Source: Microlunatus soli (GTDB lineage: Bacteria; Actinomycetota; Actinomycetes; Propionibacteriales; Propionibacteriaceae). From it: a DNA stretch of 64,000 nt. The translations under genes were made by a program, and so were the position numbers. The stretch lies in assembly GCF_900105385.1 (NCBI RefSeq), contig NZ_LT629772.1, positions 744,001-808,000 on the forward strand, given 5' to 3'. The notes beneath the pieces are model-generated. The model saw nothing but the letters and a program-made list of their open reading frames with translations. It was not told where the DNA came from and did not search any database. Below are positions 15,976 through 25,566 of this stretch, piece after piece (positions within the stretch are counted from its first letter, which is position 1; each line of letters begins with the position of its first letter).

Positions 15976-17349
15976 CTACTGCTGCGGGGGCGGCCCGGCC
16001 GGCGGCGTCGGCTGCGAACTCGGCCCGAACGGCGGCTGCTGCGACTGGTGCTGTGGACCGGCTTGACCCGCGCCCGGTTGATCGGATCCGGCCGGCGGCA
16101 GGAACGGATTGGCACCCTGCTGCTGTGCCTGTTGGCCTTGCTGGGGTTGCGAGCCGGACTCCTCCGCCGGACCGCCCGGGGCGTCGAACTGCGGAGCAGC
16201 CGGCTGATCGGGACCGATGCCCAGCGCTGCCTTCTGGTCGCTGCGCAGCGCGGAGCCGCCGCGCCGGCCGCCGGGCTCCCGTTCCAACTCCTGAGCGGCG
16301 GCGATCGCTTCCTGCACCCGCTTGTCGGCCTCGGCGTCGTCCTGCTTCTTCTGCTCGACGAGCTCGGCCTGGACGTCGATCTTCTCCGGCGCCTTGAAGT
16401 CGCCCTCGATCCGGGCCGGGATCCCGCTTCCTTCCTTGCCCTCCGCAGCGGCGCCCTGCCCGAAGGCGCCACCCAGGCCTTCCAGAGCCTTGCCGATCTC
16501 CGACGGCACGACCCATACCTTGTTGGCGTCGCCGCGGGCGATCTGCGGCATCATCTGCATGTACTGGTACGACAGCAGGGCCTGGTCCGGCTGACCGGCA
16601 TGGATCGCGTTGAAGACCGTACTGATCGCCTGGGCCTCGCCTTCGGCGCGCAGCATCTGCGACTGCCGATCGGCCTGGGCGCGGAGCACGGCGGCCTCCC
16701 GATCACCCTGGGCTCGCAGGATCGCCGACTCCTTCTCACCGCCGGCGGACAGGATCTGGGACTGCCGCTGCCCCTCGGCCAGCAGGATCGAGGCCCGCTT
16801 GTCACGCTCGGCCCGGGCGCCCTTCTCCATCGCGTCGCGGATGGTGGGCGGCGGCTCGATGGCCCGCAGCTCGACCCGGTTGACCTTGATCCCCCACTTG
16901 CCGGTGGCTTCGTCCAGCACCACCCGCAGCTTGCCGTTGATCTCCTCGCGGCTGGTCAGCGTCTGTTCAAGATCAAGACCACCGATGATGTTCCGCAGTG
17001 TGGTCATCGTCAGTTGCTCTATCGCCCGGATGTAGTCCTGTGCCTCGTAGGCCGCGCGCACCGGATCGATCACCTGGAAGTAGATCACCGAGTCGATGCT
17101 CACCATCAGGTTGTCCTCGGTGATCACACCCTGCGGCGGGAACGGTACGACGGCCTCGCGCATATCGATGTTGTAGCGCACCTTGTCCGCGATCGGGATC
17201 ACCAGGTGCGGGCCCGGTCCGATGGTTCGCTGGAACTTGCCGAGTCGTTCGACCAGCCCGACGCGCTGCTGGTGGATGATCTTGATCGCCGATCCCAGGA
17301 CGATGATCAACAAGATCACGACGACGATCAGGACGATAATGCCGCCCAT
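15976..17349 (-). CDS. SPFH/Band 7 membrane protein (stomatin/prohibitin family)
   Basis: A 457-residue SPFH-domain protein. An N-terminal transmembrane segment covers about 3-22, then the Band 7 domain (Q-R-V-G-L-V-E-R-L-G-K-F, R-E-E-I-N-G) and a charged A/E/R-rich coiled coil around 190-275. The last 80 residues are a low-complexity P/Q/G tail. ATG 17349 has AGAGGAG upstream and starts at the membrane segment. It follows the NfeD gene by 49 bp; NfeD and SPFH proteins are usual partners in membrane microdomains. Its job is membrane organisation or protein quality control, by family knowledge. Confidence 0.9.
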   Translation of the reverse strand: MGGIIVLIVVVILLIIVLGSAIKIIHQQRVGLVERLGKFQRTIGPGPHLVIPIADKVRYNIDMREAVVPFPPQGVITEDNLMVSIDSVIYFQVIDPVRAAYEAQDYIRAIEQLTMTTLRNIIGGLDLEQTLTSREEINGKLRVVLDEATGKWGIKVNRVELRAIEPPPTIRDAMEKGARAERDKRASILLAEGQRQSQILSAGGEKESAILRAQGDREAAVLRAQADRQSQMLRAEGEAQAISTVFNAIHAGQPDQALLSYQYMQMMPQIARGDANKVWVVPSEIGKALEGLGGAFGQGAAAEGKEGSGIPARIEGDFKAPEKIDVQAELVEQKKQDDAEADKRVQEAIAAAQELEREPGGRRGGSALRSDQKAALGIGPDQPAAPQFDAPGGPAEESGSQPQQGQQAQQQGANPFLPPAGSDQPGAGQAGPQHQSQQPPFGPSSQPTPPAGPPPQQ

Positions 17350-17398
17350 GGCTATCGAGCTCCTCTGCTGCGATTGGAAGCAACCGTGTCTACCCAGC

Positions 17399-17887
17399 CT
17401 ACGGGCTCGGTAGTTCACCGTACTTGGGGTAGACGACGGCGATCGCACCGTCGACCTCGTACACCTCGATCTCGGTGCCCTCTTCGATCACCAGATCCGG
17501 AGTGTACGGACGCGCCGTCCAGGTCAGCCCGTCGACCTTGACCTCACCACCGGAGGCACCGATCTCTGCCGTCACCACTCCGCTGCTGCCGACCATCTTG
17601 TCGGTCGAGCTGCGATAGCCGGGCATCTGGTGGATGCGCTTCATCAAGGTCGGCCGGAGCAGGAACAGCATGCCGACCGACACGGCCACCGCCACCACGA
17701 TCTGCAACCCCCACAGACCGGGGGCGATCAATGCCGTCACGGCGCCCCCGACCGCGCCAGCAGCGATCATGATCAACACCAGGTCCAGGGAGATGATCTC
17801 GGCCACGCCGAGCAGCGCGGCCAGGGACAGCCACAGCGCCCACGGATTGTCGCCGAGCCAATCGGTCAGATTGATCATCGGTGCCAT
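17399..17887 (-). CDS. NfeD family membrane protein
   Basis: A 162-residue NfeD-like protein with three to four transmembrane segments between about 15 and 85 and a C-terminal OB-fold domain near 95-157 (S-G-V-V-T-A-E-I-G, then the usual hydrophobic W-x-A and Y-E-V-D-G strands). The serine-protease domain of long NfeD proteins is absent; this is the short NfeD1b type that pairs with stomatin-like proteins. It lies directly upstream of the SPFH gene. An ATG three codons downstream (17878) is an alternative start. Confidence 0.85.
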   Translation of the reverse strand: MAPMINLTDWLGDNPWALWLSLAALLGVAEIISLDLVLIMIAAGAVGGAVTALIAPGLWGLQIVVAVAVSVGMLFLLRPTLMKRIHQMPGYRSSTDKMVGSSGVVTAEIGASGGEVKVDGLTWTARPYTPDLVIEEGTEIEVYEVDGAIAVVYPKYGELPSP

Positions 17888-18838: not shown

Positions 18839-19261
18839 TCAGTCGGGCAACCGATAGTCGAGGTCGAAGTGATGCGTGCCGTCGGGGTCGATGCTCAACG
18901 TGCCGGTGCCACTGATCCCGACCAGTTCGCCGGTGCCGCTGTCCGGGACGATCCTGAAATGTTCATCGGTGCGGTCGGCGCCATGGGTCGATGCCCCGTG
19001 CACCACGTTGAAGGTGCCGCTGCGGCCGCAGATCTCGCCGCTGATCGCCTCCAGAGCCACGTACGACCCGGCCCCGGTCTGCTGATTCAGCGCACCGAGG
19101 AACCAGGTGACCGAGCGCCCGGACAGCTCGCCGGTGAAGGTCTTGGTCAGGTAGGCGAGGCCGGCTGACGCTGCGGTGTCGATCATCGGCAGGTCACCGA
19201 CCTGTCCCGGATTCTCGGTCGGCGTGTAGTCGGCAACGGTAAAGGTCGATTTCGCATGCAC
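18839..19261 (-). CDS. DUF3224 domain protein
   Basis: A 140-residue small cytoplasmic protein of the DUF3224 family, predicted to fold as an allene-oxide-cyclase-like beta barrel. The pattern is F-x-G-E-L-S-G-R-S-V, Y-V-A-L-E-x-I-S-G, then G-S/T-F-x-V-V-H and a closing G-T-G-T-L-S-I-D-P-D-G-T-H-H-F-x-L-D-Y. Function is unknown for the family. The start is GTG, six bases downstream of TAGGTT, again a leaderless pattern. It diverges from the next hypothetical gene, which also looks leaderless. Confidence 0.8.
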   Translation of the reverse strand: MHAKSTFTVADYTPTENPGQVGDLPMIDTAASAGLAYLTKTFTGELSGRSVTWFLGALNQQTGAGSYVALEAISGEICGRSGTFNVVHGASTHGADRTDEHFRIVPDSGTGELVGISGTGTLSIDPDGTHHFDLDYRLPD

Positions 19262-19368
19262 GTGCCGAACCTAGCCGCGCCCGCACCGCAATGCTTGGAA
19301 GAACCCGACAGGGCTGGAAGACGCTGCCGATCAGCCCACTCTCACCACCGGTGACGTACCGTGTTCGG

Positions 19369-20097
19369 GTGCACTTGCCGTCAGTCAGGCTCGCCAGCCA
19401 CCTGAATGCGCTGCAGCATGCCCAGATCAGCGCCGAGGTCGCCGCGCAGGCGATCACCGAACCCGAGGTCGCCCATCACGTCGTGGACCGTGATCAGCGG
19501 TTGGGACTTGACCCGCTGACCGCGCACCCGTTGGAGCAGGTGCTGCCGGAGCTCCGACTGGTCGAACGGGAGAGTTGGGTGCTGGCGCTCCCGGTGCCCG
19601 GGACGCCCGGTGCGTTGCGCGGTCCGCGCGAGCTGAACGAGGCCGCGCTGGAGGCAGGCGAGGCAGTGATCGGGCTGACCGCCGGGATCGCGTTGGTGCC
19701 GGGCCGGGTGGGTCCGGCGGTGCAATGGCGGGTCTTCGCCGCTGAGCGTCCGTTCACCACCCTGACCCCGTACGACGCGGAGCGCGCCCTGAACGAGGTG
19801 GTCCTGGAAGCCGCGGCAACCTTGACCAGCTTGGAGATCGCCGCCGGCACCCGGCCCCGGCCGGACACCGCTCTGCGCCTGGCCCCCGGCTACCCGAGCC
19901 GGCAGTTGGCCACCGCCGAGCGAGCGGCCCGCCTGCTGCAGGCCGCCGACGTCGCCCTGGACGACGATGGTGCGGCCATCTCGGTCTACGAGGCCGACCA
20001 GCGAGCCCGGGTGCTGCGACGGCTTCGGACCGCGGCCAGCGACGCGCTCTGCGCCGCGGTCAGCTTTCCGCCCCGTCCGGAGTCGTCGGTCGGCTGA
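19369..20097 (+). CDS. Conserved-looking hypothetical protein
   Basis: A 242-residue soluble protein that I do not recognise. It is alanine- and leucine-rich, with predicted helices near the start, a central beta-type region around W-V-L-A-L-P-V-P-G-T-P-G, and helical C-terminal segments. No signal peptide, membrane segment or catalytic motif is visible. GTG 19369 was chosen because TACCGT (19357-19362) lies six bases upstream, matching the leaderless pattern of neighbouring genes; GTG 19351 is an alternative. The codon pattern supports a real gene. It converges on the XRE regulator gene. Confidence 0.65.
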   Translation: MHLPSVRLASHLNALQHAQISAEVAAQAITEPEVAHHVVDRDQRLGLDPLTAHPLEQVLPELRLVERESWVLALPVPGTPGALRGPRELNEAALEAGEAVIGLTAGIALVPGRVGPAVQWRVFAAERPFTTLTPYDAERALNEVVLEAAATLTSLEIAAGTRPRPDTALRLAPGYPSRQLATAERAARLLQAADVALDDDGAAISVYEADQRARVLRRLRTAASDALCAAVSFPPRPESSVG

Positions 20098-20106
20098 CGC
20101 GGCTGC

Positions 20107-20121
20107 CTGACCGGCCGTCAG
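20107..20121. terminator. Small hairpin between convergent genes
   Basis: CTGAC-CGGCC-GTCAG lies 10 bp after the hypothetical gene and overlaps the stop codon of the XRE gene. The stem is only five base pairs, with no T-run, so it is a weak bidirectional terminator candidate. Confidence 0.35.
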
Positions 20122-20642
20122 CGGCCCACCGACCGGCTCCGCCGGTAGTGCTGGACCGCATCGGCGGTCCGGGACGCGCCGTAGGCACGCAGCAGCTCCG
20201 CGATCTGCGGGTGATCGAGGGCCAGCCGGTCCGCCGCGGCAAGGAACTCCGGCGCCGACGCGGTCGCCCGGAACACCTCCTGGATCTCTCGTACCACCCC
20301 GCCGACGTCCTGCTGGGTGGTCATGGTGAAGACGTCGGCGGTCCGATTGCGCTCCAACTGATCCAGCGCCTCCGGCACGGCGGTTCGGCCGGTCTCGACG
20401 TCGATCAACAGGTCCCGCATGTGTTGCAGTCGCAGCGCTGCAGCCGGATTGCCGAGCTTGACCCGGTGCCCGTTGATCAACTGGGACAGCATCGGCGCGG
20501 AGACACCGAGCAGGTTTGCCAACCGCCCCTGGGTCAGACCGAGCGCGCCGGCGCAGCGCACGAGCAGATCGTTCAGCGGCTCGCCGTAGACCTCGGTCTG
20601 GGCACGTCGGTTGCGCGGAACCTCGTCATCGCTGCCGCCCAC
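20118..20642 (-). CDS. XRE-family helix-turn-helix regulator
   Basis: A 174-residue DNA-binding protein. The helix-turn-helix covers about 28-60 (G-L-T-Q-G-R-L-A-N-L-L-G-V-S-A-P-M-L-S-Q-L), followed by a helical C-terminal region that probably dimerises. The GTG start at 20642 has AAGGAGG six bases upstream; the open frame beyond it crosses operator-like DNA and is not coding. It is divergent from the VWA-protein gene, and each start has a near-identical dyad about 25 bp upstream, so it probably controls both. Its overall plan recalls EspR-type regulators, but I claim no orthology. Confidence 0.85.
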   Translation of the reverse strand: MGGSDDEVPRNRRAQTEVYGEPLNDLLVRCAGALGLTQGRLANLLGVSAPMLSQLINGHRVKLGNPAAALRLQHMRDLLIDVETGRTAVPEALDQLERNRTADVFTMTTQQDVGGVVREIQEVFRATASAPEFLAAADRLALDHPQIAELLRAYGASRTADAVQHYRRSRSVGR

Positions 20643-20664
20643 CGGGAGCCTCCTTGGTCCTTCG

Positions 20665-20685
20665 CATATTTGCTGAAGCAAATCT
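20665..20685. promoter_or_regulatory. Operator-like dyad upstream of the XRE gene
   Basis: ATTTGC-TGAA-GCAAAT is a perfect 6-bp inverted repeat inside a 21-bp block shared with a second site at 20720-20740. It lies 22 bp upstream of the XRE start, a place suited to autoregulation. The AT-rich half-site TTTGC stands out from the GC-rich background. Confidence 0.7.
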
Positions 20686-20719
20686 ACCTGATCGACTTGC
20701 GGGTGACCTCTCCCGCTGG

Positions 20720-20740
20720 CATATTTACTTTTGCAAATCT
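20720..20740. promoter_or_regulatory. Second operator-like dyad upstream of the VWA gene
   Basis: This 21-bp block matches the 20665-20685 site at most positions (ATTTAC-TTTT-GCAAAT core, one imperfect half). It ends 27 bp before the VWA start. Centre-to-centre distance between sites is 55 bp, close to five helical turns, which would suit cooperative binding or looping. Confidence 0.68.
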
Positions 20741-20767
20741 CGGTGCTGAACATTCTCGGAGGACCTG

Positions 20768-22690
20768 ATGCGTACCGGACTGATCAAGCCGACGGTCGTG
20801 GCGCTGGCCACTGCCCTGCTGGGCATCACGGCGGTGGTCCTGCCGGCGGCACCCGCCGCCCATGCCGACCCGGCGAACAAGATGATGCTGGTGATGGATT
20901 CGTCCGGATCGATGAAGGAGAAACTGTCCGACGGCAAGACCAGGATCTCCGCCGCCAAGTCGGCGTTGAACACCGTCATCGGCGGGCTGCCCGGCAGCCA
21001 GCAGGTCGGCCTCCGGGTCTACGGGGCCAAGGTCTTCGATCGCAGCGACAAGGGTGCCTGCACCGACTCCCAGCGAGTCGTCGACCTCGGCACCGACAAC
21101 CGTGACGATCTGAAGGCGGCGGTCGAGAAGTACAAGCCGTACGGCGAAACACCGACCGGTTATGCGCTGCAGCAGGCCGGCAAGGACCTCGGCAACGACG
21201 GCCAACGGACCATCGTCCTGGTCTCCGACGGGGAGCCGACCTGCGCGCCGGATCCCTGTGAGGTGGCCGGCGATCTCGCCGAACAGGGCATCGATCTGAA
21301 GGTCGACGTGGTCGGACTGGACGTGTCGGGCAAGGCCCGTTCGATGCTGCAGTGCGTGGCCAAGGCCGGTCACGGGCACTACTACGACGCCGACAGCGCC
21401 GACGACATCGGCAAGGCGTTGGATACCGTCGCGACGCGGTCGTTGCGACCGTACAAGCCGACCGGCAAGCCGATCACCGGCTCCGAGCAGGCCGATGGCG
21501 CCCCGGAACTGACCGTCGGCGACTGGCAGGACAAGATCGGCGGCGCGAAGCGAGCGCGAAGCGATCTGTTCTACACGCTGCGCCGGACGCTGCCGGGGTC
21601 GACCTTCCACGTCTCGGCGTCGCTGACCACGCTGGACGAATCCGACGGCCTGGACCTGAAGATCATCGGCGACACCTCGAACTGCGGGTTCGCCACCGAA
21701 CAGCACCCCGTCCAGTACGGCCAGCTGATCAGCGTGGCCATCACCGCTCCGGGCTACCGCGACTGGGACGAGAAGTGCACCGAGAACGACGAGTTCACGG
21801 TGGAAGTGACCCGCAAGGAAAATGACGGAGCGTCCCGCACCGTGCCGTTGGAGCTCCGGGTCGCCGAGGAACCTCCGGTCGACAACGTCGACTCGCTGCC
21901 GAAGGAGCTGCCCGACTCCGATTACGCCCCACCGGAGACCGGACCGGCCACCAAGATCGTCGGCGGCAGCTCGTTCGCTCAAGCCACCGACATCAAGCCC
22001 GGCTCCTTCAGCGGCACCTTGGTGCCGGGCGAGGTGCAGATCTTCCAGCTGCCGATCGAGTGGGGACAGCACCTCACTGCCGAGACCCGGATCAAGCCAC
22101 TCAACCAGCAACTGGACGACGCGATGGGCAACGGCCCCAACTGGCTCAACGTGAAGCTGTTCTCGCCGTCCCGGGCCATGGCCGAGAACGTCGTCAAGTC
22201 CAAGACCCAGGTCATCGTCGCACCGGACGGCGCCGAGGCACATGCGGTGAGCTATCCGGTCGCGTACCGGAATCGGACGTCCTTCGTGACCAGCAAGTCC
22301 GGAGCCAACCGCGCCGGCGTCTACTACATCGCGGTCGGGCTCAGCCCCGCGGAGGGTAAGTCCTACCAGCTGCCGTTCACGCTCAATGTCGGCGTCGACG
22401 GCGACGTGGTGGGCAAGCCGACATATCTGGAAAAGGGTCGACAGCCCAGCGCCAGCCCTTCGGCCGGCAGCACGCCGAGTATGTCGACGCCGACCCCATC
22501 GGCCAGTGCCCCGACGACGCCCGATCCGTCGCCGACCGGCAACCAGAGCGGTACGGCCGTCGACGACTCCGACGCCAAGCCGAACCCGTTGATCCGCGCG
22601 GTGGGGATCGCCGCCGGATCGGTCGGTGGACTCGCCGTCCTCGGCGGCATCGTCGCTTTGATCGTGGTGTTGATCCGGCGCCGCAGCTGA
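20768..22690 (+). CDS. Secreted, membrane-anchored von Willebrand factor A domain protein
   Basis: A 640-residue surface protein. A signal peptide (about 1-33, A-H-A cleavage) is followed at once by a VWA domain with a complete MIDAS start D44-S-S46-G-S48 and a threonine in G-E-T-P-T. Two beta-rich domains follow, then a Ser/Thr/Pro-rich linker near 555-600 and a C-terminal transmembrane helix (about 612-636) ending in R-R-R. A GGAGG site precedes the ATG. It is divergent from the XRE regulator and convergent with a Ser/Thr kinase gene 13 bp away. Metal-dependent ligand binding at the cell surface is the family role; the ligand is unknown. Confidence 0.88.
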   Translation: MRTGLIKPTVVALATALLGITAVVLPAAPAAHADPANKMMLVMDSSGSMKEKLSDGKTRISAAKSALNTVIGGLPGSQQVGLRVYGAKVFDRSDKGACTDSQRVVDLGTDNRDDLKAAVEKYKPYGETPTGYALQQAGKDLGNDGQRTIVLVSDGEPTCAPDPCEVAGDLAEQGIDLKVDVVGLDVSGKARSMLQCVAKAGHGHYYDADSADDIGKALDTVATRSLRPYKPTGKPITGSEQADGAPELTVGDWQDKIGGAKRARSDLFYTLRRTLPGSTFHVSASLTTLDESDGLDLKIIGDTSNCGFATEQHPVQYGQLISVAITAPGYRDWDEKCTENDEFTVEVTRKENDGASRTVPLELRVAEEPPVDNVDSLPKELPDSDYAPPETGPATKIVGGSSFAQATDIKPGSFSGTLVPGEVQIFQLPIEWGQHLTAETRIKPLNQQLDDAMGNGPNWLNVKLFSPSRAMAENVVKSKTQVIVAPDGAEAHAVSYPVAYRNRTSFVTSKSGANRAGVYYIAVGLSPAEGKSYQLPFTLNVGVDGDVVGKPTYLEKGRQPSASPSAGSTPSMSTPTPSASAPTTPDPSPTGNQSGTAVDDSDAKPNPLIRAVGIAAGSVGGLAVLGGIVALIVVLIRRRS

Positions 22691-22710
22691 TCACCGGAAC
22701 CGATCAGCTG
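22684..22710. terminator. Bidirectional hairpin containing both stop codons
   Basis: CAGCTGATC (22684-22692) pairs perfectly with GATCAGCTG (22702-22710) across a 9-base loop. The left arm contains the stop codon of the VWA gene and the right arm that of the convergent kinase gene, so both transcripts end in the same stem. Confidence 0.55.
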
Positions 22711-23885
22711 AGCAGCAGGGCGGCGACCGCTATCAGGATCAGTCCGGCGCCGATCGCCAGCAGCGGAAACACGATCCCAGCGGGCCGTCGAGCCGGTGGC
22801 GCGGCGGTGCCGTTCGCCGGTCCGTGTCCATCATCGCCGCGCGCCACATATCGCTCGCCGTGCCCGGCAGCGATCGGGCGGTCCGACGCCGGTGGCCAGG
22901 CCTGCTGCTTCTGGGGTTGTGGGTCCCGGGGGTGCTGGATCGGGAGTTCTCGGGCTGGGAGTTCTTGGCCTGGGGGTCGCTGGAACTGCAACGGCTCAGG
23001 TTGGGACGGGGCCGGTGACGCGGTCTCGCGCGGCCCGTGGGTCGTCCATCCTTCGGGCATCGGGGGCAGGTGATCGAAGACCTCGATCTCCCGGCTGCGT
23101 TCGCGATCCCAGGCCGTCGGCGTGCAGCCGTGCAGCGCATCAAGGGCCTGTTGGGCCGAACCGAATCGGCGTTCGGGGTCCGGCTCGATCAGTCTGCCGA
23201 CCACCGGCGCCAATGAACTCTGTCCGATCTCTGCCAGCTCGACCGGATCGGCGTTGCTCCCACTCGGGGGTCGGGCACCGGTGAGCAGCTCGACGGCGAC
23301 CATCCCCACCGAGTAGAGGTCCTGCCGGGGGTCGGGGTCGGCGCCGCGGAACGCCTCGGGCGACTGGTAGCCCGGCGTACCGATCACCTCACCGACCCTG
23401 GTCATCCGCGGATCGTCGACCGCCATTGCGATGCCGAAGTCGGTCAACCGGAGCCGTGGGCGGCCGGTGCCGGTCGCGTCCAGCAGCAGGTTGGACGGTT
23501 TGATGTCGCGGTGCACCAGCCCGGCAGCGTGCACCGCGACCAGCGCGGACAGCAGCTGACCGATCAGGTCACCGACCCAGATTCCCGGCAGGGCACCGAA
23601 GTCGCGGGCCAGCGTGGCCACCGTGCCACCGGCGACCAGCGGCATCGTGAACAGCACCCGATCGTCCTCGGCCGACCAGCCGACCGGGGTGACGACATGT
23701 TCATGATCGATCCGCCACGACGTCTCCCGGACGAACCGCAGCAACGAGGCGCTGTCGGACTGCTTGAGCATCTTGGCCGCACGGAAGGTCGCTTCCTTGT
23801 GGTCCCAGACCCGCCAGACCGTACCCATCCCGCCGTCGCCGAGAACGTCGACGAACTCGTAGCGGCCGGCGAACCGTTCTGCCAT
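22704..23885 (-). CDS. Transmembrane serine/threonine protein kinase
   Basis: A 393-residue Hanks-type kinase. The glycine loop is G-D-G-G-M-G (16-21), ATP lysine K38, catalytic loop H125-R-D127-I-K-P-S-N, and D-F-G at 149-151 with an activation segment ending G-T-P-G-Y-Q-S-P-E. All residues for activity are present. After about 265 comes a long P/Q/E-rich linker, then one transmembrane helix at about 370-392 right at the C-terminus, so there is no extracellular sensor domain of its own. Convergence on the VWA gene with a shared hairpin suggests that the VWA protein could be its outside partner. Confidence 0.9.
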   Translation of the reverse strand: MAERFAGRYEFVDVLGDGGMGTVWRVWDHKEATFRAAKMLKQSDSASLLRFVRETSWRIDHEHVVTPVGWSAEDDRVLFTMPLVAGGTVATLARDFGALPGIWVGDLIGQLLSALVAVHAAGLVHRDIKPSNLLLDATGTGRPRLRLTDFGIAMAVDDPRMTRVGEVIGTPGYQSPEAFRGADPDPRQDLYSVGMVAVELLTGARPPSGSNADPVELAEIGQSSLAPVVGRLIEPDPERRFGSAQQALDALHGCTPTAWDRERSREIEVFDHLPPMPEGWTTHGPRETASPAPSQPEPLQFQRPPGQELPARELPIQHPRDPQPQKQQAWPPASDRPIAAGHGERYVARGDDGHGPANGTAAPPARRPAGIVFPLLAIGAGLILIAVAALLLS

Positions 23886-23967: not shown

Positions 23968-24738
23968 TCAGGCGCCCATCTTCTGCATGCCGCCGTCGAC
24001 GTGCACCATCTCGCCGGTGGTCTTGGGGAACCAGTCGCTGAGCAGCGCGACGGCGGCCTTCGCTGCCGGGTTGATGTCCTTCGGGTCCCACCCGAGCGGG
24101 GCGCGCTCGCCCCAGACGTCGTTGAACTGTTCGGAGCCCGGGATCGCCTTCTTGGCCAGCGTGTCCAGTGGGCCGGCCGAGACCAGATTGACCCGTACGC
24201 CCTCGGGCCCGAGATAGCGGGCCAGGTAGCGGGAGGTGGACTCCAACGCGGCCTTGGCGACGCCCATCCAGTCATAGACCGGCCAGGCGACGGTGGCGTC
24301 GAAGTCGAAGCCCACCACCGAGGCGGTCTCACCGAACAGCGGCTTGACCGCCATCGTCAGGCTGCTCAACGAGTACGCCGACACCTGCATCGCCGTGGCG
24401 ACGTCGGGCCACGGCGTGGTGAGGAAACCGCCACCGAGCGCGGTCTCCGGATTGGCGAACGCGATGCAGTGCGCGACCCCGTCGATCCGATCGACATGCT
24501 CGCGCAGGTTGCCTTCCAGGGCGGCCAGATGATCTTCGTTGCTGACGTCGACCTCGAGCAGCACCGGCTCCGGATCGAGCTTCTTGATCACCCGCCGGGT
24601 CAGACTCATCGCCCGACCGAAGTTGGACACGATCACCGTCGCGCCCTCCTGTTGGGCGATCTTGGCGACGTGGAAACCGATCGAGGTGTCCAGGGTCACG
24701 CCGGCGACCAGGATGTTCTTGCCTTCAAGGATTCCCAC
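23968..24738 (-). CDS. fabI: Enoyl-[acyl-carrier-protein] reductase (NADH), InhA type
   Basis: A 256-residue enoyl-ACP reductase that performs the last reduction of each fatty acid elongation cycle. The glycine-rich region is G-V-T-L-D-T-S-I-G-F (13-22) and the catalytic pair Y155-x6-K162 matches InhA/FabI spacing. The start is GTG with GGGAG upstream. It follows fabG by 66 bp in the same order as mycobacterial mabA-inhA. It is a standard, complete housekeeping gene and the likely target of InhA-type inhibitors. Confidence 0.95.
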   Translation of the reverse strand: MGILEGKNILVAGVTLDTSIGFHVAKIAQQEGATVIVSNFGRAMSLTRRVIKKLDPEPVLLEVDVSNEDHLAALEGNLREHVDRIDGVAHCIAFANPETALGGGFLTTPWPDVATAMQVSAYSLSSLTMAVKPLFGETASVVGFDFDATVAWPVYDWMGVAKAALESTSRYLARYLGPEGVRVNLVSAGPLDTLAKKAIPGSEQFNDVWGERAPLGWDPKDINPAAKAAVALLSDWFPKTTGEMVHVDGGMQKMGA

Positions 24739-24804
24739 TGCTACTCCCGTACTTGATCTTGCGGGTTGATCATGAAATTTGGTGATCGCGGGTCGCGCCG
24801 AGGA

Positions 24805-25566
24805 TCAGTGGCCCATCCCGATCCCGCCGTCGACGGGGATCTGTGCACCGGTGATGTAGCCGGCGCTGTCGGACGCCAGGAACTCGACGGCGGCGGTGAC
24901 ATCGTCGACCGCGCCGAGCCGGCCCAAGGGGATCTGCTTCTTGTATTCGGCGACCAACTCGTCGGACAGCACGGCGGTCATGTCGGTCTCGATGAAGCCG
25001 GGCGCGACCACGTTCGCGGTGACGCCGCGGGAGCCGACCTCGCGGGCCAACGAACGGGCCAGTCCGACCAGCCCGGTCTTGGACGCGGCGTAGTTGACCT
25101 GCCCGGCCGAGCCGAGCATCCCGACCACCGAGGAGATGAAGATGATCCGACCGAACCGGTTCCTGATCATCGGCCGGACCGCGCGCTTGGCGACCCGGAA
25201 CGATCCGGTCAGGTTGGTGTCGATCACCGACTGCCAGTCCTCGTCGGACATCCGCAGCACCAGCGTGTCCTTGGTGATGCCGGCGTTGGCGATCAGCACC
25301 TCGACCGGGCCGTTCGCCTGCTCGACCTGGGCGAACGCGGCGTCGACCTGGCCGGCGTCGGTCACGTCGCACTCGACGCCGAGCACCCCGGTCGGAGCCT
25401 CCCCGCTGCGCGATGTGGTGGCGACCTTGTGGCCGGCGGCGGCGAACCGCTCGGCGATCGCCCGGCCGATCCCCCGGCTGCCGCCGGTCACCAGCACGCT
25501 CCGCGGCTGGAAGCCCTCGTCGGCTGTGTCGGTACCTGATCCTGCGGTCTGTCCTGCGTCAGTCAC
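24805..25566 (-). CDS. fabG: 3-oxoacyl-[acyl-carrier-protein] reductase, MabA type
   Basis: A 253-residue short-chain dehydrogenase reducing beta-ketoacyl-ACP with NADPH. NADPH motif T-G-G-S-R-G-I-G (27-34), N-A-G (94-96), S-S at 145-146, and catalytic Y159-x-x-x-K163 are all present. A 20-residue polar N-terminal extension precedes the fold. The GTG start lies six bases after TAGCGT (minus strand), so translation may be leaderless. It forms an operon with fabI, as in mycobacteria. Confidence 0.95.
   Translation of the reverse strand: MTDAGQTAGSGTDTADEGFQPRSVLVTGGSRGIGRAIAERFAAAGHKVATTSRSGEAPTGVLGVECDVTDAGQVDAAFAQVEQANGPVEVLIANAGITKDTLVLRMSDEDWQSVIDTNLTGSFRVAKRAVRPMIRNRFGRIIFISSVVGMLGSAGQVNYAASKTGLVGLARSLAREVGSRGVTANVVAPGFIETDMTAVLSDELVAEYKKQIPLGRLGAVDDVTAAVEFLASDSAGYITGAQIPVDGGIGMGH

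What the first reader, a model, noticed from the sequence alone, without database searches (positions are those of the whole stretch)
20118..23885. XRE regulator, secreted VWA protein and transmembrane kinase form a candidate surface-signalling module
The XRE and VWA genes diverge, and each start has a near-identical ATTTGC-N4-GCAAAT-like site about 25 bp upstream, with centres 55 bp apart. The VWA protein has a signal peptide, intact MIDAS and C-terminal anchor. The kinase has all catalytic residues and a C-terminal membrane helix but no outside domain. VWA plus kinase could make a split receptor. The half-site TTTGC is like the EspR motif of mycobacteria, which could hint at the regulator class. 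The link between the three is inference from gene order.
Basis: partly seen in the sequence, partly recalled or inferred. Interest (0 to 1): 0.62.

Follow-up and report, generated by a model that had tools for sequence, protein, structure and literature searches.

The report
Three-gene surface-signalling module of actinobacteria
Three neighbouring genes (a DNA-binding regulator, a membrane-tethered protein kinase and a protein displayed on the outside of the cell) look like an unstudied signalling module kept together in many actinobacteria, Streptomyces among them, and the regulator appears to control its own gene and the surface-protein gene through a matching pair of DNA sites.

Summary
Two 16-bp dyads, ATTTGC-N4-GCAAAT and ATTTAC-N4-GCAAAT, lie 25 and 29 nt before the XRE and VWA starts; they are the only two places in the 6.73-Mb genome within one mismatch of ATTTRCN4GCAAAT. 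The genes form a conserved module: of 96 XRE loci read (two are duplicates), 86 hold XRE, kinase and the ectodomain gene, and 8 of the other 10 are cut by contig ends. Gene order varies, and no fourth family is shared by more than two lineages. The XRE gene is in 101 of 101 genomes sampled from a genus matching Streptomyces. A dyad RTTYGC-N4-GCRAAY (one mismatch allowed) precedes XRE in 73 of 80 named loci, the kinase in 0 of 80; shuffles give under 1%. Proposed mechanism: a dedicated auto-repressor set by the tail-anchored kinase, which is informed by the ectodomain protein. The operator link is well supported; repression, phosphorylation and receptor steps are inferred.

The parts
20118..20642 (-). 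XRE-type regulator, 174 aa: HTH region (helices within 7-101), flexible Ser/Thr-containing linker (102-112), four-helix C-terminal domain (113-173)
   Evidence: Pfam HTH_31/HTH_3 just below cut-off; AlphaFold model pLDDT 91.5 with a low-confidence linker; alignment of 26 sequences
20649..20655 (-). ribosome binding site AAGGAGG of the XRE gene
   Evidence: read directly; supports the GTG start at 20642
20668..20683 (.). operator dyad 1, ATTTGC-TGAA-GCAAAT, 25 nt before the XRE start codon
   Evidence: like sites precede XRE genes elsewhere
20723..20738 (.). operator dyad 2, ATTTAC-TTTT-GCAAAT, 29 nt before the VWA start codon
   Evidence: like sites precede module VWA genes elsewhere
20768..22690 (+). 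secreted, membrane-anchored VWA protein, 640 aa
   Evidence: Pfam VWA_2 2.4e-14; AlphaFold pLDDT 83
20879..21442 (+). VWA domain with intact MIDAS (residues 38-225); absent from most streptomycete partners
21470..22402 (+). two beta-sandwich domains (residues about 235-370 and 395-545), the part shared with VWA-less partners
   Evidence: secondary structure; profile positions about 230-633 matched by VWA-less partners; weak-superposition Foldseek hits such as ColG 5iku
22610..22684 (+). C-terminal membrane-type helix of the VWA protein (residues 615-639)
22704..23885 (-). tail-anchored Ser/Thr kinase, 393 aa, with an EVFDHLPPMP motif after the catalytic domain
   Evidence: Pfam Pkinase 2.4e-35; alignment of 16
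22707..22766 (-). C-terminal hydrophobic segment of the kinase (about residues 374-393), nothing after it
   Evidence: hydropathy

Best explanation
The three genes are one conserved signalling module of actinobacteria. Best supported: the XRE protein binds the dyad RTTYGC-N4-GCRAAY and near forms, of which this genome has one near-perfect copy at the XRE promoter and one at the VWA promoter. It most likely represses both, because the sites lie within tens of bases of the start codons, in some relatives within 3-7 nt of the estimated start. Inferred: the tail-anchored kinase, which usually has no outside domain of its own, is informed through the membrane by the neighbouring anchored ectodomain protein and phosphorylates the XRE protein, plausibly on its Ser/Thr-rich linker. 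That would loosen DNA binding and adjust the amount of ectodomain protein and of XRE, giving a self-tuning surface sensor. Status of the steps: linkage of the genes shown by comparison of genomes; the operator assigned by phylogenetic footprinting; binding, repression, phosphorylation and kinase-ectodomain contact not shown.
For: Linkage: of 96 XRE loci (window, 15 from unnamed relatives, 80 named; L054 and L055 duplicate L023 and L024) 86 have XRE, kinase and ectodomain gene, 8 are cut by a contig end, one lacks the ectodomain gene and one the kinase. XRE and kinase are directly adjacent and co-directional in 83 of 96, and the trio is kept in several gene orders. In 16 loci of 12 lineage groups (two in one genus) no family outside the trio and its antisense shadow frames is shared by more than two groups (frames of 110 aa or more). 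Co-occurrence: kinase subfamily at E<1e-120 in 15 of 16 XRE-positive and 1 of 41 XRE-negative relatives, Fisher p 1e-11. Operator, 16 representative loci of the 96: best mismatch to the window-derived consensus is at most 3 before 16 of 16 XRE genes and 13 of 17 VWA/ectodomain genes, against 0 of 15 kinases and 1 of 21 VWA genes without XRE beside them. Named loci: RTTYGCN4GCRAAY within one mismatch before 73 of 80 XRE genes, 10 of 15 full VWA genes, 0 of 80 kinases; shuffles 0.1-1%. Separate sites before XRE and VWA where the two are convergent (L023, L025, L101). An unlinked kinase+VWA pair in G004 has the dyad too (L146).
Against: No binding, phosphorylation or contact data. The kinase promoter in the window has no dyad. 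Most VWA-less partners have no near-perfect dyad: 12 of 67 do within one mismatch, though shuffles give 0.4%. The stricter pattern RTTYRCN4GYRAAY is met before only 36 of 80 named XRE genes. The match in L027 is weak (3 mismatches, shuffles reach it in 5-8%). Nine further degenerate matches exist in the genome, so other targets are not excluded. The VWA family also occurs without the module, with hits at E<=5.2e-100 in 11 of 41 XRE-negative relatives; G025 has kinase plus VWA without XRE (L150). Ser/Thr-rich linkers are common, so the phospho-site is a guess; the best conserved Thr (Thr159) opens the last helix and may be structural. No sigma-70-like promoter was found to place the sites against.
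Confidence: 0.6

Rival explanations
1. The XRE protein regulates itself and the VWA gene, and the kinase acts on other envelope or division targets. The ectodomain protein is an adhesin or wall-binding effector (output), not a sensor.
For: Sites stand before XRE and VWA but not before kinases. The VWA protein gives Foldseek hits to pilus adhesin SpaC and ColG tandem collagen-binding domains, with low TM-scores. Membrane Ser/Thr kinases with many substrates are common (recalled).
Against: Kinase and XRE are directly adjacent and co-directional in 83 of 96 loci, which suggests kinase-regulator coupling. The kinase subfamily tracks XRE presence across genomes.
Confidence: 0.27
2. It is an anti-phage or toxin-antitoxin type unit: an XRE antitoxin-like repressor with a kinase effector.
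For: The kinase matches PADLOC PD-T4-6 models, best E 8.9e-51; the HTH resembles HigA-type antitoxins weakly.
Against: One copy in each of 101 of 101 genomes sampled from the Streptomyces-like genus, beside tRNA genes in five loci looked at and near gyrA in the one examined; defence loci are patchy (recalled). No PADLOC hit for XRE or VWA at E 0.001. I expect most Ser/Thr kinases to match these kinase-domain models, but did not test that.
Confidence: 0.06
3. The three genes are neighbours by chance or descent, with no functional link.
For: In the 73 Streptomyces loci XRE and kinase always stand in the same order, which vertical descent alone could give.
Against: Different orders and orientations retain the trio across lineages with otherwise unrelated flanks; the shared dyad stands before genes that lie apart.
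Confidence: 0.03

Closest known systems
S. coelicolor SCO3860 (tail-anchored kinase) and SCO3859 (DNA-binding protein)
   Same: The SCO3860 tail printed in PMC3087755 (passages read) is nearly the same as that of the module kinase in L072. SCO3859 was captured on ssg promoter DNA in a pull-down (PMC4457907, section 13 read) and is, by locus number, probably the XRE protein.
   Different: Nothing in the passages I read describes the three-gene module, the ectodomain partner or the operator. That SCO3859 is the XRE gene is inference from numbering. The hit for SCO3859 in PMC9779433 is a primer name.
EspR of Mycobacterium tuberculosis
   Same: Half-site TTTGC; a short similar stretch at the HTH (profile positions 43-68).
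   Different: E = 0.5 only; EspR is reported as a nucleoid-associated protein with hundreds of sites (PMC3315491, passages read), here two near-perfect dyads in the genome.
PknB/Stk1 PASTA kinases
   Same: Ser/Thr kinase domain, best NCBIfam match NF033483 (151 bits).
   Different: Far below the cut-off of 450; no PASTA match; tail-anchored without ectodomain.
PpkA of Pseudomonas aeruginosa
   Same: A Ser/Thr kinase combined with a VWA domain (PMC1262709, passages read).
   Different: There both are in one protein; here they are separate genes and no XRE gene or operator is mentioned in the passages read.
MoxR-vWA ternary (VMAP) systems
   Same: Conserved gene groups with a vWA protein (PMC7159879, passages read).
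   Different: Those are centred on a vWA-MoxR ATPase pair; here the VWA protein is secreted and no fourth gene is shared.

Membership tests
XRE-kinase-ectodomain module (defined here) | XRE homologue, kinase subfamily and anchored two-beta-domain protein side by side | tested here: met
   Window and 85 others of 96 loci
XRE-kinase-ectodomain module (defined here) | dyad RTTYGC-N4-GCRAAY or near form before the XRE gene | tested here: met
EspR family | homology over the whole protein | tested here: inconclusive
   profile hit E 0.5 over 26 residues; EspR not among the 4 single-sequence hits
EspR family | global, nucleoid-type binding with hundreds of sites | tested here: inconclusive
   two near-perfect dyads in 6.73 Mb, 11 with the degenerate pattern; a pattern count is not a binding test
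PknB/PASTA kinases (NF033483) | score above curated cut-off, PASTA repeats outside | tested here: not met
   151 bits against 450; no PASTA match in Pfam
MoxR-vWA ternary systems | MoxR ATPase and third component next to the vWA gene | tested here: not met
   no fourth family shared by more than two lineage groups beside the trio; MoxR itself was not searched for by profile
PD-T4-6 defence kinase | demonstrated defence activity | not testable with these tools
   only a kinase-domain profile match
Tail-anchored membrane kinases (SCO3860 type) | single C-terminal membrane segment with almost no tail, no N-terminal signal | tested here: met
   SCO3860 tail (membrane location itself not testable)

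The most novel reading that the evidence does not exclude
A so far undescribed class of bacterial receptor: a split Ser/Thr receptor kinase (tail-anchored kinase plus separate anchored ectodomain protein, with or without a VWA domain) that signals to its own dedicated XRE repressor through phosphorylation, and is core equipment of Streptomyces envelope biology.
Probability: 0.35. Interest if true: 0.78.

Novelty: new variant of a known kind. Interest (0 to 1): 0.6.

Why it matters
Bacterial Ser/Thr kinases seldom have known inputs and outputs. Here the gene neighbourhood and a dedicated operator name a candidate output (the XRE protein and its two promoters) and a candidate input (the anchored ectodomain protein) for a kinase subfamily whose XRE partner was found in every genome sampled from the Streptomyces-like genus. 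It can be tested in S. coelicolor with standard tools.

Tried and rejected
EspR as the regulator class: half-site agrees, family membership not shown. Promoter consensus scan: none found. Loose 3-mismatch dyad scan in the window: at chance level. C-terminal domain of XRE: Foldseek and VIA rows cover mainly residues 7-102, so it was barely tested. Search for a fourth conserved gene: none among frames of 110 aa or more. Defence reading: kinase-profile matches only. Literature: searches gave listings, and the passages I opened do not describe the trio; in one search I saw 15 of 43 papers listed. The library holds open-licence papers only. S. coelicolor was first looked for under other locus numbers (SCO3867-SCO3871); those hits do not bear on the module. 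Phylum sample: 12 of 396 genomes, but only 8 candidates per genome were scored in that search, so absence elsewhere is not established. A degenerate dyad 489 bp before a VWA paralogue of the same genome lies inside the reading frame of the gene before it and is taken as chance.

Rows dropped and choices made: L039 and L040 (very weak XRE hits) and L038 (weak XRE hit in a long frame, though kinase and ectodomain gene are present) were left out of the 96 loci. Searches used 16 representative trio loci of the 96 (near-duplicates L032, L035, L037 and the Streptomyces loci left out); the named loci were all counted. Kinases cut by a locus end were left out of the 90, which include L038, L146, L150 and the two duplicates. 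The consensus RTTYGCN4GCRAAY was written after reading upstream regions, so 73 of 80 is partly fitted; searches used a consensus drawn from the two window sites with one further degenerate position. Sites between divergent genes are counted for both genes. Start codons in other genomes are estimates from profile alignment. The cut E<1e-120 for the kinase subfamily was chosen after seeing the list; at the cut searched (1e-70) it is 16 of 16 XRE-positive and 3 of 41 XRE-negative genomes, with at most 33 candidates per genome scored.
Full report
What was checked. The finding names an XRE regulator, a secreted VWA protein and a transmembrane kinase at 20118-23885, with two near-identical dyads. 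The genes are as described. The XRE gene starts at the GTG at 20642, after AAGGAGG. The dyads are at 20668-20683 and 20723-20738, 55 bp apart centre to centre, 25 and 29 nt from the two start codons, in a 125-bp intergenic space of 52% G+C in a window of 63-70%. In the whole genome (one contig of 6,732,914 bases) these are the only places within one mismatch of ATTTRCN4GCAAAT; the reversed control pattern gave one match on each strand. With 3 mismatches the window is at chance level, so only the near-perfect matches carry information. The wider pattern RTTYRCN4GYRAAY has 11 places in the genome, these two and nine others of the more G+C-rich GTTC form; of the nine I looked only at the one near a VWA paralogue, which lies inside a reading frame.

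Are the three genes a unit? XRE homologues occur in 16 of 57 relatives searched, the window's genome included. Profile searches of all frames and a tally of gene order give, for 96 loci (L054 and L055 duplicate L023 and L024): 86 with all three; 8 with XRE and kinase where the kinase frame runs to the end of the locus; one without an ectodomain gene (L026, where a frame that looks LysR-like by eye stands in its place); one without a kinase (L030, whose contig has related kinases elsewhere). The trio occurs as STK> VWA< XRE> (as in the window), STK> XRE> VWA<, XRE> STK> ectodomain<, VWA< XRE> STK>, ectodomain< STK> XRE>, and variants with a second VWA gene; XRE and kinase are directly adjacent and co-directional in 83 of 96. 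In 16 loci of 12 lineage groups (two of them in genus g15) no family of frames of 110 aa or more, other than the trio and its antisense shadows, is shared by more than two groups. The kinase subfamily is found at E<1e-120 in 15 of 16 XRE-positive and 1 of 41 XRE-negative relatives.

How widespread? In a genus whose 11 fetched loci match named Streptomyces loci at 84-100% identity, 101 of 101 genomes sampled have the XRE gene, one match each. In the loci looked at it lies beside a tRNA-Ala gene (five of five streptomycete loci scanned), with a tRNA-Ile gene beyond the ectodomain gene in four of five, and in L099 near gyrA. The kinase tail of S. coelicolor SCO3860 printed in PMC3087755 is almost identical to that of L072, so SCO3860 is very probably the S. 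coelicolor member; SCO3859 is probably its XRE protein (inference from locus numbers). In an even sample of the phylum 12 of 396 genomes scored, the window's included, with only 8 candidates scored per genome.

The operator. In 16 representative trio loci, upstream regions were compared with the window-derived consensus ATTTRCN4GYAAAT. At 3 or fewer mismatches: XRE genes 16 of 16; VWA or ectodomain genes 13 of 17; kinases 0 of 15; VWA genes without an XRE neighbour 1 of 21. At 2 or fewer: 14 of 16, 12 of 17, 0 of 15, 0 of 21 (Fisher p 5e-7 for XRE against kinases, 2e-6 for module VWA against other VWA). In divergent pairs the site is shared, but in L023, L025 and L101, where XRE and VWA are convergent, each has its own. 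A second, unlinked kinase+VWA pair in G004 (L146) carries GTTTGCTTTCGCAAAC 25 nt before its VWA gene (shuffles reach this in 3%). In the 80 named loci RTTYGCN4GCRAAY within one mismatch is found before 73 XRE genes (shuffles 0.25%), 10 of 15 full-length VWA genes (1%), 12 of 67 VWA-less partners (0.4%) and 0 of 80 kinases (0.1%); the loci hold 128 such matches against 3 for the reversed pattern in 931,490 bases. The stricter RTTYRCN4GYRAAY is met before 36 of 80. In five Streptomyces-like genomes the perfect form GTTCGCN4GCGAAC occurs 2-6 times, and the copy before XRE is present in all five (with XRE places). So the regulator looks local more than global. Sites within tens of bases of the start codons, in L023, L025 and L057 within 3-7 nt of the estimated start, fit repression better than activation (inference).

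The proteins. XRE: an all-helical model at pLDDT 91.5; HTH region to residue 101, flexible linker 102-112, then a four-helix domain. Structure comparison matches the HTH part, at Z 7 or less, to HigA2, SinR and ClgR among others; the C-terminal domain was barely tested. The linker segment has at least three Ser/Thr in 91 of 91 distinct homologues, and Thr159 is Thr in 96% (whose own numbering runs two higher). VWA protein: signal-type N-terminus, VWA domain with intact MIDAS, two beta-sandwich domains, Pro/Ser/Thr-rich stretch, C-terminal helix. Foldseek finds VWA proteins and, with low TM-scores, multi-domain proteins such as pilus adhesin SpaC and tandem collagen-binding domains of ColG, so the beta domains are only loosely placed. 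Of 66 streptomycete loci with a partner, 65 have one matching only profile positions from about 210-260 onward, that is without the VWA domain; nine of these also have a VWA-bearing copy. Kinase: catalytic residues invariant, an EVF[DT][QH] motif after the kinase domain in 61 of 90, and 15 or fewer residues after the last hydrophobic segment in 82 of 90; six kinases, all of genus g15, carry 82-95 residues beyond it (two other g15 kinases, L026 and L036, do not); in two none was called.

Mechanism. Shown by comparison: the genes belong together and share a dyad tied to the presence of XRE. Inferred: XRE binds it and represses itself and the VWA gene; the kinase, mostly without a sensor domain, uses the neighbouring ectodomain protein as its outside part; and XRE is its substrate. 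The frequent XRE-kinase pairing in one direction supports the last point but does not prove it. Against a tight circuit stand the lack of a dyad before kinases, its absence before most VWA-less partners, and VWA relatives without the module (hits at E<=5.2e-100 in 11 of 41 XRE-negative relatives).

Compared with what is known. EspR membership is not supported; it is not a PASTA kinase by score and not a MoxR-vWA ternary system by its neighbours. Defence or toxin-antitoxin function is unlikely for a gene present in every genome sampled from the Streptomyces-like genus, though the kinase domain matches PD-T4-6 models. In the library searched SCO3860 appears as a tail-anchored kinase and SCO3859 as a protein captured on ssg promoters (passages and one section read), and I saw no description of the module in listings or passages. 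I file it as a new variant of a known kind: Ser/Thr-kinase signalling with a dedicated repressor and a detached surface domain.

Noticed in passing
G000:C1:583312-585192 (-), L133 (outside the window): A VWA paralogue in the same genome (615 bits) with no XRE or kinase of this kind in the 14 kb read; a degenerate dyad 489 bp before it lies inside the frame of the preceding gene.
   Followed up: partly
L031-L035, L037 kinases (genus g15): These kinases carry a conserved 82-95-residue part (CGWQEAG...) after the membrane segment, unlike the tail-anchored rest.
   Followed up: partly
window 23968-25566 (-): Enoyl-ACP reductase FabI and a FabG1-like 3-oxoacyl-ACP reductase lie side by side just beyond the kinase; the order recalls mabA-inhA (from memory).
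   Followed up: no
window 19291-20097 (+): Open frame of 268 aa that ends just beyond the XRE gene's end, with no Pfam match.
   Followed up: no
window 15976-17887 (-): SPFH/Band 7 protein with an NfeD-like partner.
   Followed up: no
L026 6412-7380 (-): In the second module copy of G036 a frame that looks LysR-like by eye occupies the place of the VWA gene, while the dyad GTTTGCTATCGCGAAT before XRE remains.
   Followed up: partly
window 18839-19261 (-): DUF3224 family protein.
   Followed up: no
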